Shown here: positions 1,290 to 32,540 of the stretch, one piece after another | Layout: every line of letters begins with the position of its first letter | Position numbering within the stretch: position 1 is the first letter of the stretch | From: Candidatus Omnitrophota bacterium | GTDB lineage: Bacteria; Omnitrophota; Gorgyraeia; Zapsychrales; Fredricksoniimonadaceae | NCBI GenBank assembly: GCA_903861305.1 | Contig: CAIOTT010000056.1 | Coordinates: forward strand, 69,918 to 102,613 | Reading direction: 5' to 3' | DNA: 32,696 bases | Made by a program: the position numbers and the translations under genes | The notes under the pieces: generated by a model | Told to the model about the DNA's origin: nothing | The model's database searches: none | The model's input: the letters and a program-made list of their open reading frames with translations, nothing else

Positions 1290-1297
1290 GTGTCACG

Positions 1298-1306: not shown

Positions 1307-1313
1307 AACGAAC

Positions 1314-3903: not shown

Positions 3904-3932
3904 GGATTTCTGACGTCCTTTTCAGAGGCGCC
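3890..3932 (-). terminator. Possible terminator after giant gene 1
   Basis: Directly after the TAG of giant gene 1, the minus strand can pair GGCGC...AAGGA with TCCTT-GCGCC around a 9-base loop. A 7-base bulge sits on one side. The hairpin is followed by TTTATTGTT. The bulge and short T-run make it a weak intrinsic terminator. Confidence 0.4.
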
Positions 3933-4129
3933 TACTTGCCCGCGCTCACCGGCAACAGCCCAAGGAATTCGGAAATGTCCTTCAGCGGTTCCATGCCGAT
4001 GATCACAGGCCTGATCCCGTCCGCGCCATCCAGCTTGTGCAAGGCGTCGGGAACGAACTGGAACACCGCACCCTGGCCGGCGTCGCGCGACTCAACCGCC
4101 TGCATGCCGGGGCCGAGGTCAATGCCTCC
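3932..4129 (-). other. Conserved C-terminal tail of giant protein 1
   Basis: The last 65 codons begin GGIDLG and end in a segment with GIRPVIIGMEPL. The tail lines up with the last 62 residues of giant protein 2: GGI[DN]L, then RD-x-G-x-G, then a G[IL]xPxI-xx-x-P block. It may be a sorting or anchoring domain; that role is inferred only from its position in two exported proteins with different middles. Confidence 0.6.
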
Positions 4130-7100: not shown

Positions 7101-10100
7101 TCAACTGAAACCCATTCAGGAAGCTCTGCGACAGGATCTTTTTGCGCCAAAAGCTCCTTCCTTACGCGCTGCAAACATTCCCGGTCCGTAAGCTTGCGGT
7201 CCGCGGCATATTTGATCAACACCTTGCCCTCGACATCAACCCATGGCTGGCCGCCATTCTTCAAAGCATCCACCAGCGATCTGATCCTTTTATACAGCCG
7301 CCCCCTGAAGATACGGTAGATATCATTGCCATCGAAGAGGCCCTGCGCGGCCAGCCAGCCTGTGCGGGCCGGCGCCCACCGCCTGAAATTGGCCCCGTAC
7401 CTTCTGGCCAATGTCAGGGCCTGGGAAAAACTAAAAAGCGGCCGGCCGGCTTTATCCCGATATGCCCAAAGTTCGATCAAAAATACGGCCCGCGCGTACC
7501 GGTCGTCTTCCCTGGAAATTTCCTCCGCGGCTTTTTGTTTCACGCCGGCCCCATGAAAACTGATCCGCTGCAACTGCCGTGCGAACTCATCTTTATCGTC
7601 GATCTTTTGAAGCTGCTTCATAAAACCCGGAACATCCACATCGCCGCTGCCGGCCTCCGGGGTGATGGAGACCCCTTCAGGAGCAAATTTGACCGGAACT
7701 TCTTTCTTTTCCAGTTCAGCCCTCAAGTTGTTTAGCCAGGCTCCGTCTTTGGGCACCCACATGACGGCATATTTCAACAATATCTTGCCATCGAGCACCG
7801 GCGCTTCCCGGCCGCTCTGCATCAATTGCTCGATCATGAACCGGATCTTGACCACCAACCTGTTCTTCAAAATGTAAGAGATATCGCTGCCGTCAAAAAT
7901 ATCCTGCTCCATCAGCCATTGCAGACGCGACCGGACCTGGCTTCTTCCCCGCGGGCCGGACGACCCGGCGATCGTCACGGCTTGTTCAGGATCGAACAGA
8001 GGCAGGCCCTGCACATTCACGTATGTCAAAAGTTCAACCACAAAAAGCGCCTGCGCGTACCGATCGCCGCTTCGGGCGATCTCTTTGGCCGCCACAGGAC
8101 CGATGGGCCTCCCCTGCGACATGAGGCGTGCCAACTGCCGGGTAAAGACCTCTTCGTCGTCGGTCTCTTTAAGATCTCTAAGAAAATCCGCAACAGCAAC
8201 CTCCTCATTCCCTGCGGCAGGCCCGACGGAGATCCACCGGGGAATACCCGTAACGAAAGCTTCTATCGCCTCAAGTTCGGTCCGGATCCTTTTTATCCGC
8301 TCGGCGTCTATCCGCCCCGGCATCATGGCATGCTTGATCAGCATTTTACTGTCGGGCCCTCGCACTTCCGGCACAGCCTGGCTTAACCCTGCCATAAGGA
8401 GCTCGATCTTCAGGAATATCGTGTTTTTGATAATATAATAAATGTCGTCGCTGTCGAAGATGCCCTGCTTCAGCAGCCAGTTTATACGCCATAACGCCTG
8501 TTCTCTCACATTCAAGCCGGGTGATCCGGCCAATGACATGATCTGATCAAGCGTAAAAAGTAGCTGGCCATTCTCATCCTGGTATGTCAACAGTGCGATC
8601 ACGAAAAGGACCCGCGCGTACCGGTCAGGTTCCCGGGTGATCTTTGCCCATGCATTATGGTCCAGGGCTTGCCCCCGGAATTTGATGCGCCGCAATTCCT
8701 TCAGCAGAACGCCCTCCTGAACTTCTTTCAGCCCTTTCAAATATTCTCCTACATCAACGGGCTTGCCATCATCGCCCGCATCAACAGCCAGCCCTTGCGG
8801 AAAACTTGTGGACATTTCGTTACTCTTGAGCTTTTCCTTGATCCACTCCCACGGGTCATTGCCAAAAGCCCCCTGGTTGCTCATGTACGCCATCAATCTG
8901 ATGCCGTCCACCCGAGAAAGCCGGTATCCTTCACGGGACAGGTCATCGATCAGCGCCCTGGCCCTTTCCAGCCAGCTCCTGGCCAGGAGCGTATAAAACT
9001 GCCGGTCATCAAGGACTGTCTGGCCCAGGAACCAGTTGACCTGTCCGGGCAGCTGCATCCTGTTGCTGCGCTCCAAAGAATTTGCCAGCACGCGCGCGCG
9101 TGAAAGATCGAACAGGGGCTCGCCTTCGTTGTTCCTGTAATTTAAAAGTTCCATCAATACAAGGACCCGTGCATACCGGTCTTTCTTGACGGCAAGCCTG
9201 CCTGCGGCCTGCGGATCCCAGACAACTTCCCCCTGGAACCTCATGCGCGGCAATTGTCCTTCAAAAAAGCTTTCTCTCCCGGCCTGTCCAAGTCTTTGCA
9301 GGAAGTCCCGCGCATCCTCCATGCCTCTGCCATTTTCCGGATCGATGGTCAACCCTGCGGGGATCGTTATGCCGACAACAGAAGCTTCGGCGGCATCGGC
9401 ATCCGCTCTTTCGGGGGTCAGGCGTCCAGAGGGATCTTTTATCTCGTTGCGGTGAACTAAGGCATCTTTCTTCCTCGCCCACAATGCCGCATCGATAGCC
9501 CGCGCCATCTCCGTCAGGAGCAACTCTGGCCTGACGGCATACGTGAGCAATACCTTGCTGTCAAGCTCCGCCAATTTCCAGACATATACTTTCTCCTTAT
9601 CCACCGTCAATTTGTTAACAAGCCATTGGACCTCTTCAAACACTCCTTCAGCGAGGATACGATAAATATCATGGCCGTCAAAAATACCCTGTTGCAGCAA
9701 GAGATTGATCTGCCAATGGTAATCCTTCTTCTTCGTCACGGACAATTTTCCGGCTAATACAACAGCGGCCTGAAGACCAAATAAGGGTTGACCCCCGTCA
9801 TTCTTACGCATCAAAAGTTCTACCAAAAAAAGTGTCCGCGCGAATCGGGCCGCCGGCTTGACCAGCGCCACAGCGTTCCGTTCATCCGCGACCCTTTTCC
9901 CGGCGAATGTGATACGCGCGAACTGCCGCGCGAAAACTTCCTCATCGCCGGAAGCGGCCTTAAGTATTGCCAGGAACTCCTGCGGGATGCCATCTTTCGG
10001 GCTAATATTGACCGGGGCTAAACCAGGGGGGATCCGGGCAAGAATACCCCTGAGAGGCGCCTCGTTCTCCTCAAGGGCCTTTTGCTTCTCAAGCACTTTT

Positions 10101-13100
10101 TGCTTCTGAATAGCCTGAAGCTCTTTTTGCTTCTCAAGGGCCTTTTTCTTCTGAAGCGCCTTATGCGCCTCAAGCACCCTTTTCTTTTCAGCGGCTTTTT
10201 GCTTTTCAAGAGACGCCATTTCCTTAATAGTCTCTTGTCTTTCAAGCGCCCCCCGTAAGTCCTGGATACGATCCGCGTCAACAGTCCCCGTCAGGCGGGC
10301 ATACCTGATCAATATTGTCGCGTCAAGCTCAAAGCGGACCTGGCCCAGGGCCTTCAACCGGTCCATGATCAATTCGATCTTGAGAAATAACTGTTGCTGC
10401 AAAATTGAATAAATATCATGTCCGTCAAAGATCTGCTGTTCCAGCAGCCAATTGATACGCCCTAACGCCTGATCCCTGGCGAACCAGCGCAGTGTTCTTG
10501 CCAGTACCGCCGCTTCATGAATGCTGAAAAGAAGCTGTCCTGCGGCATTTTCATATCTTAACAATTCAATTAAGAAAAGGATCCGCGCATGCCAATCCGG
10601 TTCTTGCGCGATCTTTTCAAGTTCATCCTTGTCCAGATCCTGTCCATGGAATTTCATGCGTGACAACTGGCCGGGGACCGCGTCCGTTTTGATACCTTCA
10701 AGATCTTTCAAGAACATTCCAACATCAACGGGCAGGCCGTCTGGTCCCGGATCAACGGTCAGCCCTTCCGGGAGATCCACGTCCGTATCCTCATGTTCCA
10801 ACCTGTCCTTTATTTCCCGCCAGGGGTCTTTACCGAAAGCTCCCAGTTTGGTCGCATAGGCCATCAGCTTGAGGCCATCCGACGAGGAAGGTTCCCACCC
10901 TTCCGCGAGCAGTTCATCGATCGTGTTCCTGGCCTGATTCAATTTACGGCTTGCCAAAAGCACAAAGAACTGCTCCTCATCAAGGACCCTCTGCTCCAGG
11001 AACCAGGCCGCGTTCCCGGACATCCGCTGCCTGTTCGCTTCCTCCATGACATTCGTCAGCACAAGGGCCCTGGAGAGATCAAAAAGAGGCTCCCCCTTTT
11101 TATTCAAATATCCAAGAAGCTCGATCAAAAACAGGACCCGCGCGTACCGGTCTTTCCCACGGGCAAGCCTTTGCGCGTCCGTGGGGTCCAGGGATGCCCC
11201 CTTGAAATTGATGCGCGGCAACTGGCGGGCAAATGTCTCCGGGTCATCGGTCTTTTTCAGATCATTCAGAAAGCCCCGGGGATCCACCGCGCCGCCCCCC
11301 TTTTCAGGAGTGATGGCGATCCATGGCGGAATGACCATGCCGGAACGGTCTTTCTTTTGAAGCTCCCGGCGTAGATCCTTTAAACGCTCCTTATCGGCGG
11401 GGCCATGCAGGCGGGCATACCGGATCAATATACTGGCGTCAAGCGCAAGGAACGGAGGGCCATCCTGCCGCAAGAGGCTGATCATCGAGCTGATATTCAC
11501 AAATAACTGATGATGCACGATGGCATAAATATCATGCCCGTCAAAGACCTGTTGCTCCTGCAGCCAATGGATGCGCCCTAAAGCCTGTTCCCTGGCGAAC
11601 CAGTGCAGGGATCGCGCCAGGACCGCCGCTTCATGCGTGTTGAACAGCGGCCGGCCTCCCGCATTTTCATATCCCAACAATTCAATGTAAAACAGGGCCC
11701 GCGCATACCAATCCGGTTCACGGGCGATCTTTTCGAATTCCTTTTTATCCGGGTCCTGTCCCTGGAATTTCATCCGCGACAATTGGCCGGGGACCGCCTC
11801 CCGGGAGCTCCCTTCGAGGTCTTTCAGGAATCCCCGGACATCCACAAACTGGCCATCGCGTCCCCGCTCAATGGTCAATCCATCCGGGATACTCACATGC
11901 GTATCCTTGTGTTTCAACCTGATCTTTATTTCCTCCCAGGGATCTTTGCCCAGAAAATCCAGTTTGGTTGTATACGCCAGCATCCTGGCACCATCCCGGG
12001 GGGACGGCTCCCAACCTTCCGCCAGCAGTTCATCGATCAGACGACTGGCCTGATGCAATTTGCGGCAGGACAATAGTGCAAAGAACTGCTGGTCATCCAG
12101 CACTTCCTGTTTCACGAACCATGCGACCTGCCCGGACACCTGTGTCCTGTGCGCCGCGGGCAATGTACTCGCCATCACAAGCGATCTGGACAGATCAAAA
12201 AGCGGCACCCCCTGCCGATCCGTATATCCCAGGAATTCGATCAAAGACAGGACCCGCGCGTACGGGTCTTTCGTACGGGAGATCTTTTCAGCCCTTTTGC
12301 TGTCCAGAGCCTGCCCCTGGTACCTAAGCCGCTGAAGTTGATCATAAAATGCACCGGTGGTTTCTATACCTGCAAGCTGTTGCAGGAAATCCCGGACAAC
12401 ATGGTCACCAGGCTTCCCGTCTATGGTCAAACCTTCCGGGATCGTTATAGCGGCAAGGGACGCCTCGGCGGCGTCGGAACGGATCTCCAGCTCATTGGCG
12501 CCATCATAATCAAGCGACTGGTCAAAGATCTCTTCCAGTTCGACGCGTTCGCCATTCAGCCAAACCGTCACGCTGTCATCGGCTAAAGCCCTTTCCAGTG
12601 TCTCGCGGACATCAGCAAAAGATACTCCGAATTTCTGCAAAGCTTCACCCCAGGATTCCGCCTCCAGGTCAAGGCCATGTCCCAGGATATTCAGATGCAC
12701 AGGCACCAGGACCCCTCTCCCTGTCCAAAGTTCATCGCCCGTGCGTGAAGGGTTGATGGGCGGGGCGGGAATAATATGGTATAAGGTCACTTCGGAAAAA
12801 CCGCCGACACCTTTCTTATCCAATGACCGCTCCCTGCCATACTTCTTCGCATACACCAGGTCTTTATAGGTCCATTTTTTCAGCAGCCTGCGCTCGATCT
12901 CTTCTTCATCCAGGCCCGCATTCACAAAAAACTGCCTCCTGTCGCGTATTTGCCGGACAGGTGAAGGCAATTCCTGACGATACACGTGAGGTATTTTATA
13001 CTGATATATTATGGCCCAGTTCCTCATGAAATTGTCCATGCCTGAATTGGCACGGGCCCAGCGATACTTGCCGCAGTAACGGTCGAATCTGGCCTTGAGC

Positions 13101-16045
13101 CCATCCCCTTCCTGGCTTAAGCGCATATACTCAGGAAGGAACTCCTTGAAGAGCCACCCCTGCATCCGGTTGCGAACATCCAGGCTGAAGCTGAGGAACA
13201 AACGCCGCACAATGGGATCTTCCTGCCTTTTCCCTGCTTCCACTTCCTTCAACAGGGCCTTGTCCTCGACAACAGAATCATCAATGTATTGCTTTAGTTC
13301 GTCGGACAGGATGCCGAGCTCATTGAAGAGGAATTTTACGTCCTGCACATCTACCTGAAGGCCCGTTTCAACACCGCTTTTTTTATTCACCATCGTCCCG
13401 GAAACCAGGTCGGCTTTTAATTTCAACGCATCAAGCGGCAATCCCCCTGTTTTATTTACCGTCCGTAACAATAACTTGCTGCGCATATCTCCGGCGAAAA
13501 CAATGGAATTAAGGATCCGCCGCACAGGCAAACCGGTCGATCTAAGCGTGGACCACAATTTCTTGAACAACTCACCTTTTTCCGCAGACCACTGCCCTAT
13601 ACTGATAGAAAAATAGACATCCTCACCATCGGCGATCATCCAACCTTCTTCCTCCTGCGCCATCCAGAAATCCACGACCTGCCTCAAATATCCTATATTC
13701 CTGAGTAACATGACCTTGATCTTGAAAGCGTTGAACAACGGGAACCCGTCATGATCAACCTTTTGTGAAAGCCAGTCGATCTTCGGCATGATCGTTCCGA
13801 GTTCTTCCAATGAAACACGGTCAACCACATACAAAGCTTCCTTCCCCGTGAGCAATCTTTTCCCGCCACGCCGGTACGCCGCAAGAGCCCTGAACATCAT
13901 GAACCGCCGGCAGGCGCCATCCGCCCCAAGTATCCGGTTCAGATCTTTGATCATGTTGGGATCATCCGTCGCTTCTGCGTACTCCCGAAAAACTTTTATG
14001 AACTGCTCTTTAAGCCACGCCGCAGACTGCTGCCTGATATCGAGGCTGAAACTGTAAGCAACCCGCTGAAAGATATCCTCGCTTTCGGCAGAAACATCGC
14101 TTGCCGTTAACTTTTCCAGCAATGCCCTGTCTTCCCGGACCTGCGCATCCACGTGAGCGTCGAAGGCCTCAGGCCCATTTAACAACTTGCGTAACTCATG
14201 AACACCGGCCACATCGATCCTCGTCATCCCTCTGACGATCCGTTCCTGCTGCTCACTGCCCCAACGCGCTTTATTGTTCGTCTTTTTCCGCATCCAGACC
14301 AAAAATGAAATGATGGTTGAAAACTTCGTCCGGCCATCAAGATGCTGACGAAAATATTTCAAGATCGCGGGATCATCATCCAGTCCCCACTGCATGAACT
14401 GAACAATATCACTCGCCTTGAACAACCACTTTCCTGAGATCATCTGTTCTTGCGCCAGTGACTGGGCCTTTGCCGGCAAAAGAGACTGTTGATCGATAGC
14501 CGCATATCTAACCAATTGAACAGCGTGGTTGGCAGTGAACAATCTTTGCCCATCCCTCTTCAGGTCCAAAAGCTTCATTAACGCAAGCAGCCGATCCTGC
14601 AACCCTTTCTTGCCGGCGATGAACAATGCGGTCTGCTCCGTAAAGATATCCGCACCATCCATTTTCATGCGCCGAAGTTGAAGGGCCATGGCCTTGCGCT
14701 GATCCTGATCTCTTTTTTTATAAGTAGAAAATTTAATAAGAAGGGCGTCGAAACTATCTATATGCCCGTCAACCTCAGGCGCGATGGTCAGCCCCCGTGG
14801 GACCTTAACACCAACAGCCTCCCCATTGGCCGACACACTTTCAGCCTCGACATGGACCTCCAAGGGCTGCTGCAGCGCCAGTTGCGACGCGTCGATCGCT
14901 GTGACTGTCTCCGGGGCGATCTTCATCTGCATGCCGCCCGCGAAATATTTCCTGGGGATCGTTTCCCGGGTGGCCGGATCATATTCTTCACGGATAAAAT
15001 TATAAGCGCCTTTTTTGAAGGCTTCCACATACCGGCCCCAGATAGCCTCGGCTTCTTTGGGGTCATCGATATTGATGCCCGGGACCTTGTTATGGTCCAC
15101 ATAGAACCCGAGCGGAGACCCCGGCATGGCGCCCAGGAGCTTCTTCTTGTACCAGGCCGCAAGGATGAGTGAATTGTAAACCTGGCGTAACGGCGCGAAA
15201 TTTTTTCCTTCGTTGACTTCTTTTTCGAGGACAGGAATGATTATCTCGCGGATGATATCTTTGGGCAGATCTTCCCCCCTCCCATCCCCTACCTGCCGAG
15301 GGGAGGGCTCTAATGGCAGGGCAGATAATGCACCGTTCTTTTCCATAGACCGATAATCTGACTCCAGCATGACCTTGAGGCGTGCCTCGACCACGTACCC
15401 CACGGCAGACTCCGGAGGCAACCCGTCTGTCGCGCGCGGCTTTTCGTACACCACAGCCTTCGCGGGCATGATCCAAACTTTGTTGAACGTATCGACCGGG
15501 ATATCCGTGGTCCCGAATTTTGTCCGCGCCTGCCGGTACACTTCTTCCCAGAATTTCTTTCCCAGCCCGTCCTCGGGGTACATCAGGCTCGCGGTGAGCT
15601 GCTTTAACAGATAGTCCTGCGCGAGAAGGTCCCGCCCCATTTCCGTCCGGCCAAAAGCGTCCGGAACAATACGGTCCTTCTCGTACGGTGAAAGATTGAC
15701 CCACAGTTCGTTCTCGGGGACTGTGAGCGAAGCGAGGAAATATTTGATCAGGCGGGTCGCGACGGCTTTCACCTGCGCATCGGCTGCTGAAGGATCTCCT
15801 TTATCGAGGATAAAATCGAAACGGAAAGGGTCATCACGAAAAACCTTGATGCCCTTTAATAAAGGTGGCGCGAACACAGGGCTCAAGGCAATACGGGCCC
15901 CAGGTTCCGGCAGCAAAGCCACCCCCTGGGCATAGGCGCGCAGGTCCGACATTAAAAATGCCGGTATCAGCACAGCCGCCAGGACCCTGTGGATCATTTG
16001 CTTTACGCGCAATCCCATCCCCTGTTTTGAAAAGACCACGTCCAC
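3932..16045 (-). CDS. Giant exported repeat protein (giant protein 1, 4037 aa)
   Basis: An exported protein of unknown function. A signal peptide spans about residues 10-39 (VLAAVLIPAFLMSDL core, cleavage likely after AYA). Next comes a head (about 50-372) clearly homologous to that of giant protein 2, including WVNLSPYEKDRIV, TEMGRD, DTFNKVWIMP and IPRKYFAGGM. A divergent first repeat follows at 415, then a unique region with a duplicated module of about 290 aa. From 1200 come 14 repeats, starting at residues 1200, 1386, 1572, 1758, 2005, 2226, 2415, 2601, 2788, 2975, 3210, 3443, 3630 and 3849. The last is truncated and runs into a tail starting GGIDL. The repeat core has QLxRMxFxG, DRYARVLFLIELL and IFDGHDIYxI, probably helical; I recognise no named fold. 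The start is uncertain: the track uses GTG at 16045, and ATG at 16018 or 15997 also keeps the signal peptide. No frameshift is seen. Confidence 0.9.
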   Translation of the reverse strand: MDVVFSKQGMGLRVKQMIHRVLAAVLIPAFLMSDLRAYAQGVALLPEPGARIALSPVFAPPLLKGIKVFRDDPFRFDFILDKGDPSAADAQVKAVATRLIKYFLASLTVPENELWVNLSPYEKDRIVPDAFGRTEMGRDLLAQDYLLKQLTASLMYPEDGLGKKFWEEVYRQARTKFGTTDIPVDTFNKVWIMPAKAVVYEKPRATDGLPPESAVGYVVEARLKVMLESDYRSMEKNGALSALPLEPSPRQVGDGRGEDLPKDIIREIIIPVLEKEVNEGKNFAPLRQVYNSLILAAWYKKKLLGAMPGSPLGFYVDHNKVPGINIDDPKEAEAIWGRYVEAFKKGAYNFIREEYDPATRETIPRKYFAGGMQMKIAPETVTAIDASQLALQQPLEVHVEAESVSANGEAVGVKVPRGLTIAPEVDGHIDSFDALLIKFSTYKKRDQDQRKAMALQLRRMKMDGADIFTEQTALFIAGKKGLQDRLLALMKLLDLKRDGQRLFTANHAVQLVRYAAIDQQSLLPAKAQSLAQEQMISGKWLFKASDIVQFMQWGLDDDPAILKYFRQHLDGRTKFSTIISFLVWMRKKTNNKARWGSEQQERIVRGMTRIDVAGVHELRKLLNGPEAFDAHVDAQVREDRALLEKLTASDVSAESEDIFQRVAYSFSLDIRQQSAAWLKEQFIKVFREYAEATDDPNMIKDLNRILGADGACRRFMMFRALAAYRRGGKRLLTGKEALYVVDRVSLEELGTIMPKIDWLSQKVDHDGFPLFNAFKIKVMLLRNIGYLRQVVDFWMAQEEEGWMIADGEDVYFSISIGQWSAEKGELFKKLWSTLRSTGLPVRRILNSIVFAGDMRSKLLLRTVNKTGGLPLDALKLKADLVSGTMVNKKSGVETGLQVDVQDVKFLFNELGILSDELKQYIDDSVVEDKALLKEVEAGKRQEDPIVRRLFLSFSLDVRNRMQGWLFKEFLPEYMRLSQEGDGLKARFDRYCGKYRWARANSGMDNFMRNWAIIYQYKIPHVYRQELPSPVRQIRDRRQFFVNAGLDEEEIERRLLKKWTYKDLVYAKKYGRERSLDKKGVGGFSEVTLYHIIPAPPINPSRTGDELWTGRGVLVPVHLNILGHGLDLEAESWGEALQKFGVSFADVRETLERALADDSVTVWLNGERVELEEIFDQSLDYDGANELEIRSDAAEASLAAITIPEGLTIDGKPGDHVVRDFLQQLAGIETTGAFYDQLQRLRYQGQALDSKRAEKISRTKDPYARVLSLIEFLGYTDRQGVPLFDLSRSLVMASTLPAAHRTQVSGQVAWFVKQEVLDDQQFFALLSCRKLHQASRLIDELLAEGWEPSPRDGARMLAYTTKLDFLGKDPWEEIKIRLKHKDTHVSIPDGLTIERGRDGQFVDVRGFLKDLEGSSREAVPGQLSRMKFQGQDPDKKEFEKIAREPDWYARALFYIELLGYENAGGRPLFNTHEAAVLARSLHWFAREQALGRIHWLQEQQVFDGHDIYAIVHHQLFVNISSMISLLRQDGPPFLALDASILIRYARLHGPADKERLKDLRRELQKKDRSGMVIPPWIAITPEKGGGAVDPRGFLNDLKKTDDPETFARQLPRINFKGASLDPTDAQRLARGKDRYARVLFLIELLGYLNKKGEPLFDLSRALVLTNVMEEANRQRMSGNAAWFLEQRVLDEEQFFVLLASRKLNQARNTIDELLAEGWEPSSSDGLKLMAYATKLGAFGKDPWREIKDRLEHEDTDVDLPEGLTVDPGPDGLPVDVGMFLKDLEGIKTDAVPGQLSRMKFHGQDLDKDELEKIAQEPDWHARILFLIELLRYENAAGQLLFSIHEAAVLARTLRWFARDQALGRINWLLEQQIFDGHDIYSILQQQLFLKIELIMDRLKALGQVRFELDATILIRYARLTGTVDADRIQDLRGALERQETIKEMASLEKQKAAEKKRVLEAHKALQKKKALEKQKELQAIQKQKVLEKQKALEENEAPLRGILARIPPGLAPVNISPKDGIPQEFLAILKAASGDEEVFARQFARITFAGKRVADERNAVALVKPAARFARTLFLVELLMRKNDGGQPLFGLQAAVVLAGKLSVTKKKDYHWQINLLLQQGIFDGHDIYRILAEGVFEEVQWLVNKLTVDKEKVYVWKLAELDSKVLLTYAVRPELLLTEMARAIDAALWARKKDALVHRNEIKDPSGRLTPERADADAAEASVVGITIPAGLTIDPENGRGMEDARDFLQRLGQAGRESFFEGQLPRMRFQGEVVWDPQAAGRLAVKKDRYARVLVLMELLNYRNNEGEPLFDLSRARVLANSLERSNRMQLPGQVNWFLGQTVLDDRQFYTLLARSWLERARALIDDLSREGYRLSRVDGIRLMAYMSNQGAFGNDPWEWIKEKLKSNEMSTSFPQGLAVDAGDDGKPVDVGEYLKGLKEVQEGVLLKELRRIKFRGQALDHNAWAKITREPDRYARVLFVIALLTYQDENGQLLFTLDQIMSLAGSPGLNVREQALWRINWLLKQGIFDSDDIYYIIKNTIFLKIELLMAGLSQAVPEVRGPDSKMLIKHAMMPGRIDAERIKRIRTELEAIEAFVTGIPRWISVGPAAGNEEVAVADFLRDLKETDDEEVFTRQLARLMSQGRPIGPVAAKEIARSGDRYAQALFVVELLTYVNVQGLPLFDPEQAVTIAGSSGPRGRSQVRSRLQWLMEQDIFDGSDISYILKNRLVVKIRFMIEQLMQSGREAPVLDGKILLKYAVMWVPKDGAWLNNLRAELEKKEVPVKFAPEGVSITPEAGSGDVDVPGFMKQLQKIDDKDEFARQLQRISFHGAGVKQKAAEEISREDDRYARAVFLIELWAYRDKAGRPLFSFSQALTLARRYGANFRRWAPARTGWLAAQGLFDGNDIYRIFRGRLYKRIRSLVDALKNGGQPWVDVEGKVLIKYAADRKLTDRECLQRVRKELLAQKDPVAELPEWVSVEPQADGEVGDVRAFWQSLKKIKDEGAFAGQLLRISLQGIPLRLDIAKEIAQKPDRYERALSLVELSTFKDDQGGPLLDYYQVVTLATFLGTKTRAGVVANVPWLKEQGIVDADDIFNIFVESLLGKIKGYIQKLRKEGWRPPFDGKVLIKYARKPYGGAGKGIYINAIKKELEERKASPGARRVDRSAGKMTPAEGRGKRPGDQLTRTLVVRSVQKAVGAYPFPAIVAGAAPVIISPDIGAPADFLKELAGTSGDEQAFARQLARMEFGGKRVVEARGVKKVLMSPGRYARVVFLAELLTYKDKQGRPLFDLDDAVLLAGKSYMSKKRSYRSQMVALRQLGIFDGHDISRIVAGNVFEEVQWLLNKLTKNKDEDRDKNKGKDEEKEEVVYVWKLTELNGKILTEYATRSDLRLDDMVVRIDAELWKNKREDLVRRGLITDPPGPVALDRFNTDAAEASVATVTVPEGLTIDGNSGDDLVRVYLKNFEKTSRGEPFRVQLSRLRFNGDKVWEEPAAGRLAKKKDGYARVLFFMELLNYKNKEGRPLFDIPRAATLARLLGRYRRGKVAGQVSWFLGQNDIDATKFFNLVQLGTIEQVMALIDSLKTKKRKLSPYTYKQLMQYRKFFSSTVRNASKMTAVTLTNRDIVLSLGQKLTIAPGEAGRSTDVMDFLKTLVSDSWDKDVFSRQLLRMRWDGEKMLEESEANAIAKKDDRYERAMSLLDFLMYRKNSGEAIFTPHRAAVLAISFGNTFRKNMPGYVEWFLGQQIFDSADFYNLLLGNGRIERAQVLVRQLELEGYKLSVADSQVLMKYARRSGLVEKERFNNAKQYLDKKVQAVITASREKKTDRRKKVVEPLVRPSPVKFSAQAVPAGLKAVHIDPDSDFPQIDILRQQGIFDTHDISRVIEANVFEKVQSLIKELMAKDAWELKELDGKILVQYAIQSGKSPDEVFAQVAMVLWNKKREALVRNGKIKDPGKVATSAGMDLDHAAVPGGIDLGPGMQAVESRDAGQGAVFQFVPDALHKLDGADGIRPVIIGMEPLKDISEFLGLLPVSAGK
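5938..6002 (-). repeat. Low-complexity Lys/Asp/Glu insertion in repeat 11
   Basis: Between NKLT and VVYVWKL, repeat 11 has about 20 charged residues (KNKDEDRDKNKGKDEEKEE) where its closest relative, repeat 5, has only VDKEK. On the plus strand it reads as a pyrimidine-rich run of cttt/tctt words, consistent with slippage expansion. It is in frame. Confidence 0.65.
10045..10245 (-). repeat. Lys/Glu/Gln coiled-coil insertion in repeat 4
   Basis: Repeat 4 is extended by about 60 residues rich in K, E, Q, A and L, with repeated LEKQKAL and ALQKKKAL words and a heptad look. This explains the 741-base spacing to the next unit. At DNA level, short words such as gcttctcaag and ctttttgcttct recur, indicating local tandem growth. 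It probably forms a helix or coiled-coil spacer. Confidence 0.7.
12449..14803 (-). other. Central region of giant protein 1: divergent repeat 0 and duplicated module
   Basis: Residues 415-1199. The first part (VPRGLTIAPEVDG, QLRRMKMDG, RLLALMKLLDLKRDGQRLF) is a divergent copy of the array repeat. Two copies of another module follow, marked by VREDRALLEKL...SFSLDIRQQSAAWLKEQF (near 640-680) and VVEDKALLKEV...SFSLDVRNRMQGWLFKEF (near 925-970), about 290 residues apart. It ends in ELEIRSDAAEASL, the same linker that ends the type C repeats. No named domain is recognised. Confidence 0.6.
14929..15898 (-). other. Shared N-terminal head domain of giant protein 1
   Basis: Residues about 50-372 align with residues about 97-400 of giant protein 2 over nearly their whole length. 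The best blocks are WVNLSPYEKDRIV, LKQLTASLxYPEDxLGKxFW, DTFNKVWIxP, IIPxxEKEVNxGxNF, LRQxYNSxILAxWYKK and the closing PxKYxxGG. The copies differ mainly in loops. I know no named family for it; from memory the region recurs in Omnitrophota proteins. Confidence 0.8.
15281..15307. repeat. GC-rich palindrome inside the head of giant gene 1
   Basis: The plus strand has cccatcccct, an 8-base spacer, and aggggaggg, which pair with one bulged base. The element is translated as the odd stretch LEPSPRQVGDGRGEDL in a loop where giant protein 2 has unrelated sequence. It looks like a small palindromic element inserted in frame. Confidence 0.45.
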
Positions 16046-22184: not shown

Positions 22185-22211
22185 AAAAGAAAACCTTACC
22201 TTTAGCGATCG

Positions 22212-26163: not shown

Positions 26164-26171
26164 GGGTACAG

Positions 26172-26176
26172 TCCTT
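26172..26176 (-). promoter_or_regulatory. Shine-Dalgarno that decides the menF start
   Basis: AAGGA on the minus strand, 8 bases before the ATG ending at 26163. Neither upstream in-frame start (TTG 26232, ATG 26205) has a comparable site. Confidence 0.6.
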
Positions 26177-26235
26177 AAGGACGCGTTAAAAAAACCGGGC
26201 ACCATCTTATCAAATCCGGCGCAAAATGGCAAAGG

Positions 26236-26424
26236 CTAGGGTTGCGTTATGGCTCCCTGCTCCAATAGAGCCGGGATGCTGACGGGAACGATCTTCCTGA
26301 TCTGCGGCTCCAGCCCGCTGATCCTGATCCCCTCCAACGGTTGGCGGGACAACGGCAAGGGAACGCCGTGGCCGTCGCGAAGGATCTGGAGACCCATCAG
26401 CGCGGCGTCGAGGTTGATGCCGCC
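26236..26424 (-). other. Conserved C-terminal tail of giant protein 2
   Basis: Residues 2059-2120: GGINLD, then RDGHGVPLP, then the GLEPQIRKIVPVSIPALL block. It parallels the last 65 residues of giant protein 1 in length, order and spacing, although the two proteins have no common middle region. Confidence 0.6.
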
Positions 26425-29400
26425 GGTTTTTTCGATCTCTTGGCTGCTATCTCCCTGCAACAACCCGGCAGGACTGCGCGCCTCTCCAAGGACAGCGGCA
26501 TGCGCATCATTGTAAACATCCACGACCAGCCCTACGGCAACACCCGTCTGTTCCTTGATCCAGGCCTCCATCTCAGACTTAACCTTGACCGCCAAAGAAT
26601 AATTCTCAAACGGCAAATTCGGGGCTTTGAACGGCGTCCCGACTATCCCGCGCTCCCGGTCTACCGGACCGGCAAAGGCGATGCCGATCTTGCGCAGCAA
26701 AGTCACGTCAGCCCCTGCCAGGGATCTCTTGACTTGATCAACTATGCCCCGTGTCACTCCGTCGGAAGATTCGGGATACGCCTCACGCCATTTGACCTCA
26801 ACAGGCTCATCCGTCATGATCCGCCCATCGAGAGAGATTTGCCCTGCCCCGATCTTAGTGCCGCCGATACTAACACCCACCGCAATATACGGCTTATCTC
26901 CCGCAGCTTCCCTGTCCTTGATACGCGTCATTTCGTCAGCCGTCAAGCGCGCCGCAATGATCTCCCTTTCCCAGCTGATACGCGAACGGTGGACACCATT
27001 GACGATCTCCTCAACGCGACTGCCGGCCACCCCGGCGCGTATCAACGCCTCACGCACCCCGTGACGGATACCATGCAACAAAATGTCCTTCTCGGGATCA
27101 CGCGCGCGGGCAAAATTCTCCCCGACACCTGAGACCATAACAAAATTCTTCACCCACGGAGCATCTTGATATACAACAAACATCGCGGCCAAAGCCGAAC
27201 CGATCTTCCCCCCCAAACGATCGACAAAATCCTCAACGGCGTCCTCTTTCTTGTCCACCAGCCCGGACCCTGCACGCAACACCATGTCAACCACCAGGGC
27301 TCGCTGCCGCTTGTTCTCTTCATTCGTATCGGAACTCAATATATTCAAATAAGCCGTTATCTCATCCTCCTGCAAATCCGTATCCATATTTTGAAAAAGC
27401 TTGGACCTGAATGAACTGTCATCCCACAACTGCCGGGCGATCCCGACACCATTAAAAATACTTTCAAACGTATGATCTCCTGGCTCCAGGACAGGCTTCC
27501 GCCCCAGCATTTCTTTCCCGGTAAAAACCCATTGATCGGTTGAGGCACGAAAAACAATATTATGTCCCAACTCCAGCAACGCGCCGCCATCCGTTTCAAT
27601 ATTCCCGTCTTCTCCAACCACCGCACCATTATTGCCTGTGCCGAAAATAAACGCCATGCCGGCCTTGATCAACTGAACCGATGTCTTCTTGTCCGCACCA
27701 ACACGGGCCGACGATGATATCGCCGTTAATCTTTCCAGCGATCCCTTAACAAATTCCAGCGAAGCACCCGTCTGCTCGGCAATCTTATCTGGCGCAACAC
27801 CTTCACGTGACAAACGGACAACATCCTCCCGTGTCACGATCGTAAAACTGGCCGGCCCCTCGCGCGCGGCTCCGGCAGGGATCAATTCCTGAAGTTGCGA
27901 CAGCTTGTCTGTTCCCAGGCTGAAAGGATCCCTCACGGTAGCCGTGGGTTCCAGCGCCCCGGCACCCGCCATTTCCGTCCATCCCGTCGCCAGGGGGAAC
28001 TTGCGCGCGTCAGCTTCGACCACGATCTGCCGGTCCTCCATGGTCACCCATGCGCGCCAGAGACCATCCTTGTCCGGTACGGCCTGAAATGTGTCGTTGA
28101 ACGCCCCGGCTTCTCCGGTCGTGATCTTCTGCCCATCACCGATGTTCCTTCCGGCGATGATATCCTCAAGAGCACCCGTTGGAAAATTAACATGCTTCTT
28201 CAAGCTCATCAAGATCCGTACCTGCGCGGCTTGCCACCACGGATGGATACCAAAAAGATCGGGCACAGGGCTGTCGCCTTTGTTAAGCGTGCTTTCCCAG
28301 ACAGTCAATCGGTTCCCCTTGAGCGTGACCGCCATGGTAGCCGCGAGATGTCCGGGGATGATAGGGCTGTCCTTGACCTCCACACCGGCCTTCACTGTCA
28401 CACCATGGTCGTCGGATGAGATCCCCTGGATCGACCAGCCCAGCTCCGCTCCGGGATGGTAATAGTGCCCCTCCCAGGTGCTCAACCCCGGTTGGCCTTC
28501 AAGCCGATATTCTTTCCCGTCCGCGACAAATGTTTTGGACACTTCTCCGATGGGAAACCCGTAATGCATGGGCGCCGCATTGACATCCACGCCGTCAGAT
28601 CCTGTAAAATGAAAAACCCTGAAACCATCCTCCGGCGACACCTCGAGCTCGGTGCCCGCCTGTTTGTCCGCGATCTTGTAATGTGCGGCCAAAACGCCGT
28701 CCCTTGCCGCAAATGAAGCCGTGATCTCGAATTTTCCTTCCCTGTTGATCCGTGCGATATCGTCCTGTATATGCAAGGGAATAACAAGCTGCCTGGCGGG
28801 CCTTGTCCCTGTCGCCGCGGAGATCTCGTCCCCAAAGGCCTCGGCCACGGTGGCGACAAGATCGGCCAGCTGGCCCTGATTGATAAGCGGCAGCGAACCG
28901 TTCAGCAGCCCCGCAATAATATCCTGCCGCGGCATCCCCTGATTTTCGTACGTCGTGAACACCTGCCCCCAGAGATCCCGGTATCTTTCCGAGTAATAAA
29001 CCCGGAAATCCGCCAAGCCGGTCTTCCTGAGCCTGTCACGGGTGTCCGCATCAAGTTCATTGTCCAGCATATTGGCATTGACGAGTGCCCCGAGGAAGGT
29101 CACGATCTTCTCACGCATCCCTTCATCCTGAACAACGCGCGTGTAGTCGACCTTCATCCCGTCAAACGCGCTCTCCAGACGGGAGAAGATATCCTCCGCT
29201 GGATGAGACGATGTCCCAACCACCTCCTGCGGCACCATCTTTTCAAGGGCATCGATCAGGCTTTTCGCCTGTTGCGGCAGGGTAAGGAATCCTCCGTCGC
29301 GTGCGGCCGCACTGCGGGACAGAATAATATAGGGCCGGCCATCCGTGTGCTGATAAACGGCCGTCAGGATGCCCTGGCGCAGATCAGCTTTGCGTACCCG

Positions 29401-32400
29401 GCCGTTATGAAGCGTTGCCGCAAGCACTGCCGCCAACTGTTTTTCCCGCGCATTCCCCTGGCCCAGCACACGCAGCGCCAGCTGCGCGACAGGTGATGCC
29501 ATGCGCACCGGTTCGCGCCGTTCGATCCAGTTGTCGGCAGATCGCCGGGAATCCACGACCAGCTTCTTCAACCGGTCGATCACCTCATCGTTGAATGCCC
29601 CCTGGAGCATACGCCAGGACCAATTGTTCGGATCCTCCGTGCCCGGGATATTGTAACGGTCCATAAGGCCCACAACGCCATCATCCCCCGCAAGGACATC
29701 CGCGTAATGAAGGACAGCCGTATCAGAATTCGTCATGAACAGGAGCTGGTCCATCAAGAAAGCGATCTTTTCTTCCGAAACCGCCTCCGTGATCCCCGCA
29801 TCGGCTAAAACAACACCAAGCCTGTTCCTTTGTCCCTCATTTAAACTGCGGTACCAGGCCCGCGTGGTCTCATTGTCGTGCGTCCCGTTAAAAGCAACGG
29901 TATCCGTAAAATAATTCCGCGGATTGAAAATATCTTCCTTCGGCCCGACGCCTTCCGGGTTCACTGACATGAATTGCGTCAACTTCATCCCTTTGAGGCC
30001 CGTATCATTCAACAACTTTACCGTGAGCGGCGTGACCGCGCCAAGATCCTCAACGAATAAAAGGTCCGGCAAGTTCGGGTACTGTTCACGCAACGCATCG
30101 AACAGAACGCGCGGATCAATGGTAGCCTGTTCATCCCTTAACCGGTGCCCATCAGACGCCCTGATACCTTCCGGTACGACCCAGGGGTCGGCCAACCCGA
30201 TAAAATGATCGCTGCGAAGCGGGTCCCCCTCCGCCAGTTCAAGGCTGTAAATGAACCGTTTCAGAAGAAAATCAATGCCATCTTCCCGCATCCAGTTATA
30301 AACAGGGTGGCCCCAATCCTGGCCATCAGGCGCAAACGCGTCGCCGGGAACTCCTGAGTGCACAGGTAATTTCCCTGTATCCTTCTCATAAATATAAGCC
30401 GCCTGGTTGCCCCACATATCGGCACTGTTAAAGCGCGGGTAGATCGGCATGTCCGACAGGATGCGGACATGATGTTCTTTGGCGAATTGCTTGCGACGGT
30501 CCCATTGCTGTCGAAGAAGGAACTGAAAAAATTTGATGAATTCGATCTCGTCCCGATGCGCGGCTTCAAAGCTTGCGACAGCGTCGGGTTCCCTGTCCCT
30601 CAATCCCGCCGGCCAATGGGTCCAATCGCTTTCACCCTGAACTGCGCTGATGGCGCGGAACTGGGCAAATTGTTGAAGCCAGTCCATGCGCAGCTTCCTC
30701 CCGCCGATCACCACCTCACGCGCGGTATGGTCAGACTTGAATTTCTCAAATTTATCCCGTAGCGCCATGGCATTGGCATCTTGCCCCCGGCCCAACGCGG
30801 CGAGATAGTTCCCATAACCTTTACGCGCCAGCATTTCCTTATAGTGAAGTGCGCTAAAAGGAACACGTGACGCGGCAATATTCTCCGGGACGATCGCCTT
30901 ATAATCGTCTTCGCTGATCAACTTATCCCGCAGCAGCGCCTCTGGACTTAACGAATTTTCATTAAGCGCGAACAAGGAGCTCCCGTTATATGGACAACCG
31001 TTCTCGTCGGTCATATGCGGCGGCAGGTCCAGCCAGTCCCGCACACCCGCTTTCTCTAACATCAGGATGTGCTCCTCGGAAGCCGGGCCAAAGTCCCCGA
31101 TACCGGTATCCCTTCCATAAAGATATGTGGAAGGTCGCAGTGCGGCCGTCGGCATCAAGACCCCGGCACCCGGTGCCTGCGCCTCGACAGCACCCAATAC
31201 CTGCGCGTTGGTCAATGGTTTCGCACCAGGCATGAACCTGGCCGCCAAAGCCGAAAGCACACTGGCCCGTGCCTTCTTTTCGGCAGCCTCTGCCAGATCA
31301 ACAGACACCTCCGCGGCCCCATCCGGCTTCCTGGCCGCTATCCACGGCCTTGCCTCTTCTCTCGTCGCGGCCCTGAGGTTTTTCTCGGAGAATCCGGTCG
31401 CCCCACCCGACACGTACTTCTTCGGCACCGTGTCACCGGTAACGGGATCTGCCTCTTCCTTGATATAATTGTAAACACCGGCCTTGAACGAGGCCACGTA
31501 CTGTTCATAGATCTGCTGGCGGAACTTCGGGTCGTCCACCCGGATGCCGGCCGTCCTGTCGCGGTCAACGTAGATCCGGCCAAGCAGGCTTTCGCGCAGG
31601 GTCTTCTTGTACCAGACCGCGAGGATCATGGAATTGTAGATCTGGCGCAGCGACGCAAAGTTGCGGCCTGTATTCACTTCTTTCTCGATCGCAGGAATGA
31701 TGACCGCGCGCACAACATCGCTCATCACAGCACTCACAGCCTTATCACCTGCCTGGGCCCCGCCCTTTTTCCTCGTCTTCTGCAAGGCCAGATAATCCTG
31801 TTCCAGCATGACTTTCAGATGCTGTTCGATCACGAACACCTTGTTCCCTTTTTCGTACACAACGCCCTTGTCCGGGATGATCCAGACCTTGTTGAACGTA
31901 TCCAGCGGCACATCCGTCACGCCAAAACGGTACTTCGCCTGCTGGTACACTTTTTGCCAGAACTCTTTGCCCAGCTCATCCTCGGGATAGACCAGCGACG
32001 CGGTCAGCTGTTTGAGGATGTAATCCTGCGCCAGCATGTCGCGGCCCATCTCGGTCTGGCCCAACCCATCCCCGACGATGCGGTCTTTTTCATACGGCGA
32101 AAGGTTCACCCACTGCTCTTTTTCAGGAACGGTCAGCGCGGCAAGAAAATATTTTACAAGTTTTGAAGATTCCTGGCGGAAGGCATCGCTCTCAAAGGAA
32201 AGGCCGGAGTCGCCCTTATCGATGATAAAACTGAACTTCAAAGGATCGTCGCGGTTGATCGCCATGCCGCACGCGAGGGGCGGAAGATACACCGGGCTGG
32301 TGCGGACCATGGTGCCGGGGACCGGGAGGTTCAATGCCGCAATGCCCCCCTGGGCCAAAGCCCCGCCCGCCGGAAGGAGCGTGTTGACAAGAAAGACCAC

Positions 32401-32466
32401 GAGCACGGCAGCGGTCTTAACCCGGGACATGGATCTTCCGTTGAACAAATGATCTGAAACCGTCAT
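26236..32466 (-). CDS. Giant exported multi-domain sugar enzyme (giant protein 2)
   Basis: Numbering follows the 2120-aa track; my start is Met45 (ATG 32466, AGGAG 5 bases upstream; 2076 aa). Met37 (32490, AGGAGGAGG 11 bases upstream) is an alternative. The signal peptide is 58-82 (cleavage after ALA), and the head domain shared with giant protein 1 is 97-400. A GH77 4-alpha-glucanotransferase (491-1030) keeps nucleophile Asp797 (RSDHFIGL), acid/base Glu850 (VEDLG) and Asp908 (GTHDNET), so disproportionation of alpha-1,4-glucans is expected. A galactose-mutarotase-like domain (about 1270-1550) has PDLFGIHPWW. An HTH-like helix pair is near 1587-1619. A ROK kinase C-lobe (about 1639-1855) is followed by a ROK N-lobe (1904-2050, with SIGGTK and Asp2031 in YNDAHAAVLGE). 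The tail is about 2059-2120. An exported ATP-dependent kinase is paradoxical. The 72-base gap suggests co-transcription with menF. Confidence 0.92.
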   Translation of the reverse strand: MTVSDHLFNGRSMSRVKTAAVLVVFLVNTLLPAGGALAQGGIAALNLPVPGTMVRTSPVYLPPLACGMAINRDDPLKFSFIIDKGDSGLSFESDAFRQESSKLVKYFLAALTVPEKEQWVNLSPYEKDRIVGDGLGQTEMGRDMLAQDYILKQLTASLVYPEDELGKEFWQKVYQQAKYRFGVTDVPLDTFNKVWIIPDKGVVYEKGNKVFVIEQHLKVMLEQDYLALQKTRKKGGAQAGDKAVSAVMSDVVRAVIIPAIEKEVNTGRNFASLRQIYNSMILAVWYKKTLRESLLGRIYVDRDRTAGIRVDDPKFRQQIYEQYVASFKAGVYNYIKEEADPVTGDTVPKKYVSGGATGFSEKNLRAATREEARPWIAARKPDGAAEVSVDLAEAAEKKARASVLSALAARFMPGAKPLTNAQVLGAVEAQAPGAGVLMPTAALRPSTYLYGRDTGIGDFGPASEEHILMLEKAGVRDWLDLPPHMTDENGCPYNGSSLFALNENSLSPEALLRDKLISEDDYKAIVPENIAASRVPFSALHYKEMLARKGYGNYLAALGRGQDANAMALRDKFEKFKSDHTAREVVIGGRKLRMDWLQQFAQFRAISAVQGESDWTHWPAGLRDREPDAVASFEAAHRDEIEFIKFFQFLLRQQWDRRKQFAKEHHVRILSDMPIYPRFNSADMWGNQAAYIYEKDTGKLPVHSGVPGDAFAPDGQDWGHPVYNWMREDGIDFLLKRFIYSLELAEGDPLRSDHFIGLADPWVVPEGIRASDGHRLRDEQATIDPRVLFDALREQYPNLPDLLFVEDLGAVTPLTVKLLNDTGLKGMKLTQFMSVNPEGVGPKEDIFNPRNYFTDTVAFNGTHDNETTRAWYRSLNEGQRNRLGVVLADAGITEAVSEEKIAFLMDQLLFMTNSDTAVLHYADVLAGDDGVVGLMDRYNIPGTEDPNNWSWRMLQGAFNDEVIDRLKKLVVDSRRSADNWIERREPVRMASPVAQLALRVLGQGNAREKQLAAVLAATLHNGRVRKADLRQGILTAVYQHTDGRPYIILSRSAAARDGGFLTLPQQAKSLIDALEKMVPQEVVGTSSHPAEDIFSRLESAFDGMKVDYTRVVQDEGMREKIVTFLGALVNANMLDNELDADTRDRLRKTGLADFRVYYSERYRDLWGQVFTTYENQGMPRQDIIAGLLNGSLPLINQGQLADLVATVAEAFGDEISAATGTRPARQLVIPLHIQDDIARINREGKFEITASFAARDGVLAAHYKIADKQAGTELEVSPEDGFRVFHFTGSDGVDVNAAPMHYGFPIGEVSKTFVADGKEYRLEGQPGLSTWEGHYYHPGAELGWSIQGISSDDHGVTVKAGVEVKDSPIIPGHLAATMAVTLKGNRLTVWESTLNKGDSPVPDLFGIHPWWQAAQVRILMSLKKHVNFPTGALEDIIAGRNIGDGQKITTGEAGAFNDTFQAVPDKDGLWRAWVTMEDRQIVVEADARKFPLATGWTEMAGAGALEPTATVRDPFSLGTDKLSQLQELIPAGAAREGPASFTIVTREDVVRLSREGVAPDKIAEQTGASLEFVKGSLERLTAISSSARVGADKKTSVQLIKAGMAFIFGTGNNGAVVGEDGNIETDGGALLELGHNIVFRASTDQWVFTGKEMLGRKPVLEPGDHTFESIFNGVGIARQLWDDSSFRSKLFQNMDTDLQEDEITAYLNILSSDTNEENKRQRALVVDMVLRAGSGLVDKKEDAVEDFVDRLGGKIGSALAAMFVVYQDAPWVKNFVMVSGVGENFARARDPEKDILLHGIRHGVREALIRAGVAGSRVEEIVNGVHRSRISWEREIIAARLTADEMTRIKDREAAGDKPYIAVGVSIGGTKIGAGQISLDGRIMTDEPVEVKWREAYPESSDGVTRGIVDQVKRSLAGADVTLLRKIGIAFAGPVDRERGIVGTPFKAPNLPFENYSLAVKVKSEMEAWIKEQTGVAVGLVVDVYNDAHAAVLGEARSPAGLLQGDSSQEIEKTGGINLDAALMGLQILRDGHGVPLPLSRQPLEGIRISGLEPQIRKIVPVSIPALLEQGAITQP
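26430..27690 (-). other. ROK-kinase module with lobes in swapped order
   Basis: The C-lobe signatures come first: FIFGTGNNGAVVG (ATP phosphate motif), GGALLELGH, GDHTFESIFNGVGI (equivalent of the ROK GCLE-ASGPAI block without the zinc cysteines) and LGGKIGSALAAMFVVY followed by VMVSGVGENF. The N-lobe signatures follow: VGVSIGGTKIGAG, IGIAFAGPVDRERGIV, APNLP and YNDAHAAVLGE. Normal ROK proteins run N-lobe then C-lobe. Confidence 0.65.
31398..32310 (-). other. Shared N-terminal head domain of giant protein 2
   Basis: Residues about 97-400 (track numbering), from MVRTSPVYLPPL to VPKKYVSGGA. The core WVNLSPYEKDRIVxDxxGxTEMGRD through DTFNKVWIxPxKxVVYEK is nearly identical to giant protein 1 apart from scattered conservative changes. 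Linker residues after it (DGAAEVSV) resemble the DAAEASV linkers of giant protein 1. Confidence 0.8.
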
Positions 32467-32471
32467 GAAGG

Positions 32472-32476
32472 CTCCT
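32472..32476 (-). promoter_or_regulatory. Shine-Dalgarno proposed for giant gene 2
   Basis: AGGAG on the minus strand, 5 bases before the ATG ending at 32466. A stronger AGGAGGAGG farther up (32501-32510) sits 10-11 bases before the in-frame ATG at 32490, so the choice is not certain. Confidence 0.5.
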
Positions 32477-32540
32477 GCCAATACCGGCATCCTGACAATG
32501 TCCTCCTCCTGCGTTACGGAGCGCCTACCTGTGATCCTGA

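What the first reader, a model, noticed from the sequence alone, without database searches (positions are those of the whole stretch)
26236..32466. Exported fusion of glucanotransferase, mutarotase-like domain and sugar kinase
The GH77 site is intact and the mutarotase and ROK parts are recognisable, so one chain could transfer glucan, interconvert anomers and phosphorylate the sugar. Yet an N-terminal signal points outside the cytoplasm, where ATP is not expected. Either the kinase part is structural, or it uses another donor, or the protein sits in an unusual compartment.
Basis: partly seen in the sequence, partly recalled or inferred. Interest (0 to 1): 0.7.

Follow-up and report, generated by a model that had tools for sequence, protein, structure and literature searches.

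The report
Exported payload protein with permuted kinase
In a tiny uncultured bacterium of the phylum Omnitrophota, about one seventh of the assembled genome encodes some 60 exported proteins that share the same front and back ends around different, mostly cell-interior-type enzymes; the protein flagged here is one of them, carrying a starch/glycogen enzyme, a sugar mutarotase and a rearranged, probably inactive sugar kinase.

Summary
The fusion is real and is one of about 60 alike. The ORF (ATG about 32490 to stop 26236, minus strand, about 2084 aa) has a Sec-type signal, a 310-aa header, GH77, a conserved middle domain, an aldose-epimerase-like domain, a ROK-like domain and a 60-aa "GGIDL…PVI" tail. 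Header and tail match no Pfam or NCBIfam family. Own genome: 63 header frames, 13.9% of the assembly; nearly all complete ones end in the tail, as do about 92 of 99 in four relatives. The payload between them varies: dikinases, starch synthase, phosphoglucomutase, radical SAM, deaminase, an AvrB-like domain.
Export is supported independently: cysteine is 0.18% in payloads against 1.39% in 230 ordinary proteins; the target has 2 where 29 are expected. Cysteines needed for catalysis survive (radical-SAM CxxxCxxC, deaminase PCxxC), so payloads look selected for activity after export.
The GH77 triad is intact. The ROK part is circularly permuted (C-lobe before N-lobe; relatives have the normal order) and lacks the DxGGT aspartate and zinc motif, as do exported relatives; free-standing ROKs of the phylum keep both. 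It probably is not an ATP-using kinase.
Best reading: secreted payload acting on glucans of prey or host. The destination is inferred, not shown.

The parts
26236..32490 (-). whole gene: header-payload-tail protein, about 2084 aa from ATG 32490
   Evidence: GGAGGAGG 11 nt upstream of ATG 32490; alternatives ATG 32466 and 32430
32350..32430 (-). Sec-type signal peptide core ending in ALAQ
   Evidence: same feature in 54 of 57 paralog N-termini
31402..32334 (-). header domain, about 310 aa, no Pfam/NCBIfam match, no PDB fold match
   Evidence: (pLDDT 80, pTM 0.79)
29599..31116 (-). GH77 4-alpha-glucanotransferase domain
   Evidence: Pfam E 2e-84; PDB 1fp8 E 3e-54
30208..30210 (-). GH77 nucleophile Asp (RSDHF)
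30049..30051 (-). GH77 acid/base Glu (VEDLG)
29875..29877 (-). GH77 third catalytic Asp (THDNE)
28819..29571 (-). middle domain of unknown function, conserved with GH77 in same-genus ortholog L215
27934..28566 (-). aldose-1-epimerase-like domain (His in EGHYYH and GIHPWW, Glu in LEPTATV)
   Evidence: below Pfam cut-off
27727..27831 (-). short helix-turn-helix-like segment
   Evidence: sequence reading only
26941..27663 (-). ROK C-lobe (GTGNNG, LELGHN, RSRISWEREI), placed BEFORE the N-lobe
   Evidence: matches L181 1072-1340, E 1.5e-38
26482..26895 (-). ROK N-lobe (VSIGGTK to YNDAHAAVLGE); Asp of DxGGT replaced by Ser
26239..26427 (-). C-terminal tail module GGINL to GLEPQIRKIVPV
   Evidence: absent from 94,420 aa of control proteins
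3932..16045 (-). sister giant (4037 aa) of the same family: header 14918-15889, tail 3935-4132

Best explanation
The gene encodes one member of a large Omnitrophota family of exported 'header-payload-tail' proteins. A Sec signal takes the chain out of the cytoplasm (strongly supported). The shared 310-aa header and 60-aa tail are handling modules for onward sorting or secretion, probably across the outer membrane (inferred). The interchangeable middle is an enzyme payload that works outside the producer (supported by kept catalytic residues). This payload processes alpha-glucans: GH77 disproportionates maltodextrin or glycogen and releases glucose, the mutarotase-like domain equilibrates anomers (both inferred from intact motifs), and the circularly permuted, Asp-less ROK domain most likely binds sugar without phosphorylating it. 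The likeliest place of action is the contents of an attacked or colonised cell, where glycogen and cofactors are available (inferred).
For: Family: 63 header frames, 241 kb = 13.9% of own assembly; 44 carry the tail in the same frame, most others are cut by contig or region ends or by single stops; 74 of 99 complete frames in four relatives end in the tail by HMM and about 18 more by eye; no header or tail in 16 control regions. Export: signal-like N-termini in 54/57; Cys 0.18% in own payloads, 0.14% in relatives', against 1.39% in 230 other proteins, Fisher 9e-152; target 2 Cys against 29 expected, P 1.4e-10; matched control: target GH77 1 Cys/550 aa, own separate MalQ 9/525. Activity: GH77 triad kept in target and L215; payload L038 has 3 Cys in 938 aa, all in the radical-SAM motif, and L035 has 2 in 1035 aa, both in the deaminase zinc motif; the same in L255, L253, L272, L250, against 0.0005 and 0.014 motifs expected by chance. 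ROK: swapped lobes against L181 and 8 others; S for D and no zinc motif in exported forms. Route and lifestyle: secretins in every genome checked, 3 in this one and up to 10; predator-to-prey transfer of molecules reported in another Omnitrophota, Ca. Velamenicoccus (PMC13153191).
Against: No direct localisation or activity data. Cysteine depletion shows life or passage outside the cytoplasm, not entry into another cell. Some payloads have lost catalytic residues (L302 GH77 lacks the third Asp). No ATP/ADP translocase was found in the family, though no control genome rang either. About half of the payloads have no Pfam match, so the family may be mainly adhesive or structural.
Confidence: 0.45

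Rival explanations
1. Payload proteins stay with the producer, in the periplasm or a surface coat, and degrade or modify glucans that diffuse in; nothing enters another cell.
For: Signal peptides and Cys depletion need no more than export. GH77 and mutarotase need no cofactor. Giant coat-like proteins are proposed for Ca. Velamenicoccus (PMC10066038).
Against: Sister payloads keep radical-SAM, ATP-grasp/phospho-His and other motifs that need SAM, Fe-S or ATP, which are not expected in a periplasm or coat.
Confidence: 0.3
2. The payloads are mostly exapted, inactive enzyme folds used as structural, adhesive or decoy modules.
For: ROK lost its Mg Asp and zinc site and is permuted; L302 GH77 lost a catalytic Asp; giant ORFs in the phylum are proposed adhesins (PMC10066038); payload turnover is fast, 21 of 56 with any match in sampled relatives.
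Against: GH77 triad intact in target and ortholog; catalytic cysteines kept while nearly all others are gone; PPDK/GWD motifs kept.
Confidence: 0.17
3. The kinase works outside with another phosphate donor, such as polyphosphate, giving extracellular sugar phosphate.
For: The N-lobe model superposes on polyphosphate/ATP glucomannokinase 1woq at 2.5 A; a PPK2 gene lies in the window at 17920-18711; catalytic Asp in NDAHAA and ELGH kept.
Against: The DxGGT Asp, shared by ATP- and polyP-using ROKs (general knowledge), is missing in the exported subfamily; PPK2 is a separate gene without a header and its neighbourhood need not mean anything.
Confidence: 0.06
4. The N-terminus is misread and the protein is an ordinary cytoplasmic fusion enzyme.
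For: Start codon not proven; the gene sits at a contig end.
Against: Hydrophobic signal plus AxAQ-type site in 54/57 paralogs; 14-fold Cys depletion in the target; a normal Cys-rich cytosolic MalQ exists separately.
Confidence: 0.02

Closest known systems
GH77 amylomaltase / MalQ (Thermus 1fp8; own cytosolic copy G000:C40)
   Same: Domain complete, catalytic Asp/Glu/Asp conserved
   Different: Exported, 1 Cys, fused in a 2084-aa chain; distant from the cytosolic MalQ of the same genome (E 3e-86 against 7e-170 to Pfam)
ROK kinases (Streptomyces glucokinase 3vgk) and ROK repressors such as Lmo0178
   Same: N-lobe fold and sequence, catalytic Asp, ELGH sugar motif
   Different: Lobes swapped; DxGGT Asp is Ser; no CxCGxxGC zinc motif
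Giant ORFs of Omnitrophota (Seymour et al. 2023, PMC10066038)
   Same: Same phylum; very long exported proteins, few annotated domains
   Different: That paper uses a 20-kb size cut-off and stresses adhesin domains; the passages read do not describe a shared header and tail or cytosolic-type enzyme payloads
C-terminal sorting systems (T9SS CTD, PEP-CTERM, MYXO-CTERM) and polymorphic effector families
   Same: Constant terminal module with variable passenger, dozens per genome (as MYXO-CTERM, PMC11980579)
   Different: Tail has no invariant Cys, no hydrophobic helix, no basic end and no NCBIfam match; constant module at both ends

Membership tests
GH77 4-alpha-glucanotransferase | full-length domain above Pfam cut-off | tested here: met
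   284 bits against cut-off 25, profile 8-462 of 465
GH77 4-alpha-glucanotransferase | catalytic Asp, Glu, Asp | tested here: met
   RSDHF, VEDLG, THDNE align with the Thermus enzyme and 25 MalQ of the family
Aldose 1-epimerase | family score above cut-off | tested here: not met
   17.9 bits against 27
Aldose 1-epimerase | two His and one Glu of the active site | tested here: inconclusive
   both His align with 3nre; Glu assigned by motif LEPTATV only
ROK sugar kinase | both lobes in N-to-C order | tested here: not met
   C-lobe 1646-1886 precedes N-lobe 1902-2039
ROK sugar kinase | DxGGT phosphate-1 Asp | tested here: not met
   VSIGGTK; Ser or Arg in the exported relatives, Asp in free-standing ROKs
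ROK sugar kinase | catalytic Asp (ND motif) and ExGH | tested here: met
   YNDAHAAVLGE, LELGHN
ROK sugar kinase | CxCGxxGC zinc site | tested here: not met
   also absent from some bona fide ROK kinases (general knowledge)
Omnitrophota header-payload-tail family (defined here) | signal peptide, header and GGIDL tail on one chain | tested here: met
Sec-exported proteins | signal peptide cleaved, protein outside the cytoplasm | not testable with these tools
   indirect support only: hydropathy and Cys depletion
PEP-CTERM / sortase / MYXO-CTERM sorting tail | short motif, then hydrophobic helix and basic end at the C-terminus | tested here: not met
   tails have none of this; no NCBIfam match
Giant adhesin ORFs of Omnitrophota | ORF over 20 kb with adhesion domains | tested here: not met
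   6.3 kb, enzymatic domains

The most novel reading that the evidence does not exclude
Omnitrophota possess an undescribed protein delivery system: a constant N-terminal header of unknown fold and a constant C-terminal tail carry a fast-changing library of cytosol-type enzymes, including radical-SAM enzymes, dikinases and glycogen enzymes, out of the cell and into the cytoplasm of prey or host, taking up about 14% of the genome; circular permutation of a payload domain is one by-product of its rapid shuffling.
Probability: 0.35. Interest if true: 0.92.

Novelty: new variant of a known kind. Interest (0 to 1): 0.74.

Why it matters
Giant ORFs are a hallmark of Omnitrophota and their role is an acknowledged open question (PMC10066038). 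A shared header and tail give a simple genomic handle on the family, and cysteine depletion with retention of catalytic cysteines gives a sequence-only test of which payloads are exported and still active. If payloads work in other cells, this would explain how ultra-small predatory or epibiotic bacteria process host polymers. The permuted, Asp-less ROK domain is a natural case of an enzyme fold rearranged in an exported protein; one full-text search of the held library found no description of a permuted ROK.

Tried and rejected
ATP/ADP translocase as a sign of an ATP-rich niche: none found, control empty, so uninformative. Amber readthrough for the in-frame TAGs: no CTA-anticodon tRNA among those detected, genome 68% complete, inconclusive. 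Tandem ROK duplication as source of the permutation: no self-similarity in L182, L183, L184, L186, L187, L191, L192; L186 is itself offset (partial C-lobe before N-lobe), so the route is open. Mixed-fragment alignments for the permuted ROK model were mostly misaligned (A2-A6); A7 was used and leaves the first C-lobe hairpin unmodelled (pLDDT under 50), so the model supports the N-lobe fold only, not the closed permuted kinase. Header fold search found nothing. Misassembly as cause of the fusion: judged unlikely because the frame is open throughout, Cys-poor throughout, and L215 shows the same header-GH77-middle-tail without the mutarotase-ROK segment; only one assembly of this species was available, so the permutation itself is unconfirmed by a second genome. 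Literature searches found no description of the header or tail.

Full report
What is in the sequence. The reported ORF is real: a minus-strand frame from the contig end to the stop at 26236. The best start is ATG 32490, 11 nt behind GGAGGAGG. In order it carries a signal peptide ending ALAQ, a 310-aa header, GH77, a middle domain, an aldose-epimerase-like domain, a ROK C-lobe, a ROK N-lobe and a 60-aa tail. Residue numbers are those of the 2120-aa frame from TTG 32598.

It belongs to a large family. A search of the own genome (1.74 Mb, 68% complete) with the first 400 residues gave 60 matches, mostly 45-56% identical, nearly all at the start of a long frame. Counting fragments there are 63 header frames, 241 kb, 13.9% of the assembly. 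Complete frames end in a tail of the type GGIDL-x45-LTPVIxxIxP: 44 in the same frame, others after one in-frame stop, the rest cut by a contig or region end. In four relatives (two of the same genus, two of the same family) 74 of 99 complete header frames end in the tail by HMM and about 18 more show it by eye. Neither header nor tail occurred in the frames of 16 control regions. Pfam and NCBIfam know neither module. A model of the header (pLDDT 80, pTM 0.79) has no PDB match, best E 0.5. In the phylum 137 of 384 genomes have headers: nearly all genomes of the same order, and scattered, mostly divergent ones in the class; no genome of another class was listed.

The payload varies. Between header and tail lie, by Pfam, GWD/PPDK dikinase domains, starch synthase, phosphoglucomutase, NAPRTase with NUDIX, PLP enzyme, radical SAM with histidine phosphatase, HD with methyltransferase and deaminase, HAD with GNAT, HATPase, a weak RelA/SpoT match, glycosyltransferase, WD40, TPR and an AvrB-like domain. 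In relatives also amylo-1,6-glucosidase, glutamate dehydrogenase-like, DnaJ and 2'-5' RNA ligase-like domains. About half of the payloads have no match. Only 21 of 56 own payloads have any counterpart in the sampled relatives, few over full length, so turnover is fast. The target shows this directly: the same-genus protein L215 has the same header (71% identical), GH77, middle domain and tail, but no mutarotase or ROK. Those two were inserted before the tail in this lineage, or lost in the other.

Export. In 54 of 57 paralogs the header is preceded by a hydrophobic stretch, usually with an AxAQ-type site. Independent evidence is amino-acid composition. Obligate anaerobes tend to exclude cysteine from exported proteins (PMC12453122, citing Daniels et al. 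2010). Payload cysteine is 0.18% here and 0.14% in relatives, against 1.39% in 230 other proteins of the genome (Fisher 9e-152). The target has 2 where 29 are expected (P 1e-10). As a homology-matched control, the separate cytosolic MalQ of the same genome has 9 Cys in 525 aa, the target's GH77 1 in 550. The depletion covers header, payload and tail, so the whole chain has a history outside the cytoplasm.

Activity. Where a payload type needs cysteine, it is kept: L038 has three Cys in 938 aa, all three in the radical-SAM CxxxCxxC; L035 has two in 1035 aa, both in the deaminase PCxxC; relatives L255, L253, L272 and L250 repeat this. Chance would give 0.0005 and 0.014 such motifs. This argues that these payloads are catalysts under selection after export, and that their place of work can hold a SAM/Fe-S enzyme. 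By reading, the dikinase payloads L031 and L039 keep ATP-grasp and phospho-His motifs. In the target the GH77 triad is intact and the mutarotase His and Glu motifs are present.

The kinase part. Compared with its closest relative L181 (a header-tail protein of another family in the same order), the target's C-lobe (1646-1886) and N-lobe (1902-2039) match at 34% and 47% identity but in swapped order. Eight or more further relatives have the normal order; L186 has a partial C-lobe before its N-lobe, with another cut point; L182 and L187 show weak C-lobe-end similarity before the N-lobe. The target's cut lies between the lobes and nothing obvious is lost. The AlphaFold model supports the N-lobe fold (PDB ROKs, 2.5-3.3 A over about 145 columns) but not the whole permuted kinase, because the first hairpin had no alignment. 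All exported ROK relatives in which the motif could be read have Ser (Arg in two) for the DxGGT Asp and no CxCGxxGC, while the free-standing ROKs of the phylum with a readable motif have Asp, nearly all with the zinc motif (one free-standing exception with Ser and few Cys, L084). That Asp helps to place Mg-ATP in this superfamily (general knowledge), so kinase activity with ATP is doubtful.

How it may work. Sec export; header and tail steer a further step; secretins are plentiful (3 in this incomplete genome, 10 in G116), so a type-II-like route is possible but unproven. Another Omnitrophota, Ca. Velamenicoccus, is described as a predator of archaea, and its intron RNA was found inside dead prey (PMC13153191), so transfer into other cells has a precedent in the phylum. 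Glycogen-type enzymes recur among payloads (GH77, amylo-1,6-glucosidase, starch synthase, dikinase, phosphoglucomutase), which suggests use of a partner's storage glucan. Delivery into cells is the weakest step; periplasm or coat is the main rival.

Verdict. The fusion is genuine and the puzzle is real, but it is a family-wide property. The new points are the header-payload-tail family, the cysteine signature of exported yet constrained enzymes, and a permuted, Asp-less ROK domain.

Noticed in passing
L049 1316 and 2438, L041 1080, L037 11460, L054 3663, L033 13617, L064 3216, L043 2262: Eight single in-frame stops interrupt header-tail frames that continue in frame; seven are TAG, one TGA, while TAG also ends 12 of 55 tail frames. 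No CTA-anticodon tRNA was found. Decaying genes or readthrough: open.
   Followed up: partly
window 3932-16045 (-): 4037-aa sister giant with header and tail; its interior is a series of diverged repeats (FARQL.RI, RYARVLFLIELL) without a Pfam family above cut-off.
   Followed up: no
window 18804-26232 (-): Menaquinone-type gene cluster (AMP ligase/MenE-like, MenC, UbiA/MenA-like, MenB-like, MenD-like, chorismate-binding MenF-like) between the two header proteins, with PPK2 and RNase II next to it.
   Followed up: no
L060 1717-5775: NAPRTase payload with the NAPRTase N-domain matched twice, the best copy (1015-1139) after the NAPRTase C-part (471-644): duplication or another rearranged payload domain.
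   Followed up: no
L046 670-3711 (-): Payload with an AvrB_AvrC match (E 2e-15), a family named after plant-pathogen effector proteins.
   Followed up: no
L210 3-7688, L211 10819-16551, L211 16622-19999, L199 4464-7499: Large proteins with hardly any Cys but no header or tail: probably a second set of exported giants.
   Followed up: no
window 63-1553 (+): 496-aa ORF without a Pfam match, overlapped by a 404-aa ORF on the other strand (75-1289); which is the gene is unclear.
   Followed up: no
G116 (relative, same genus): Ten secretin-domain matches in a 2.0-Mb genome, an unusually high number.
   Followed up: no
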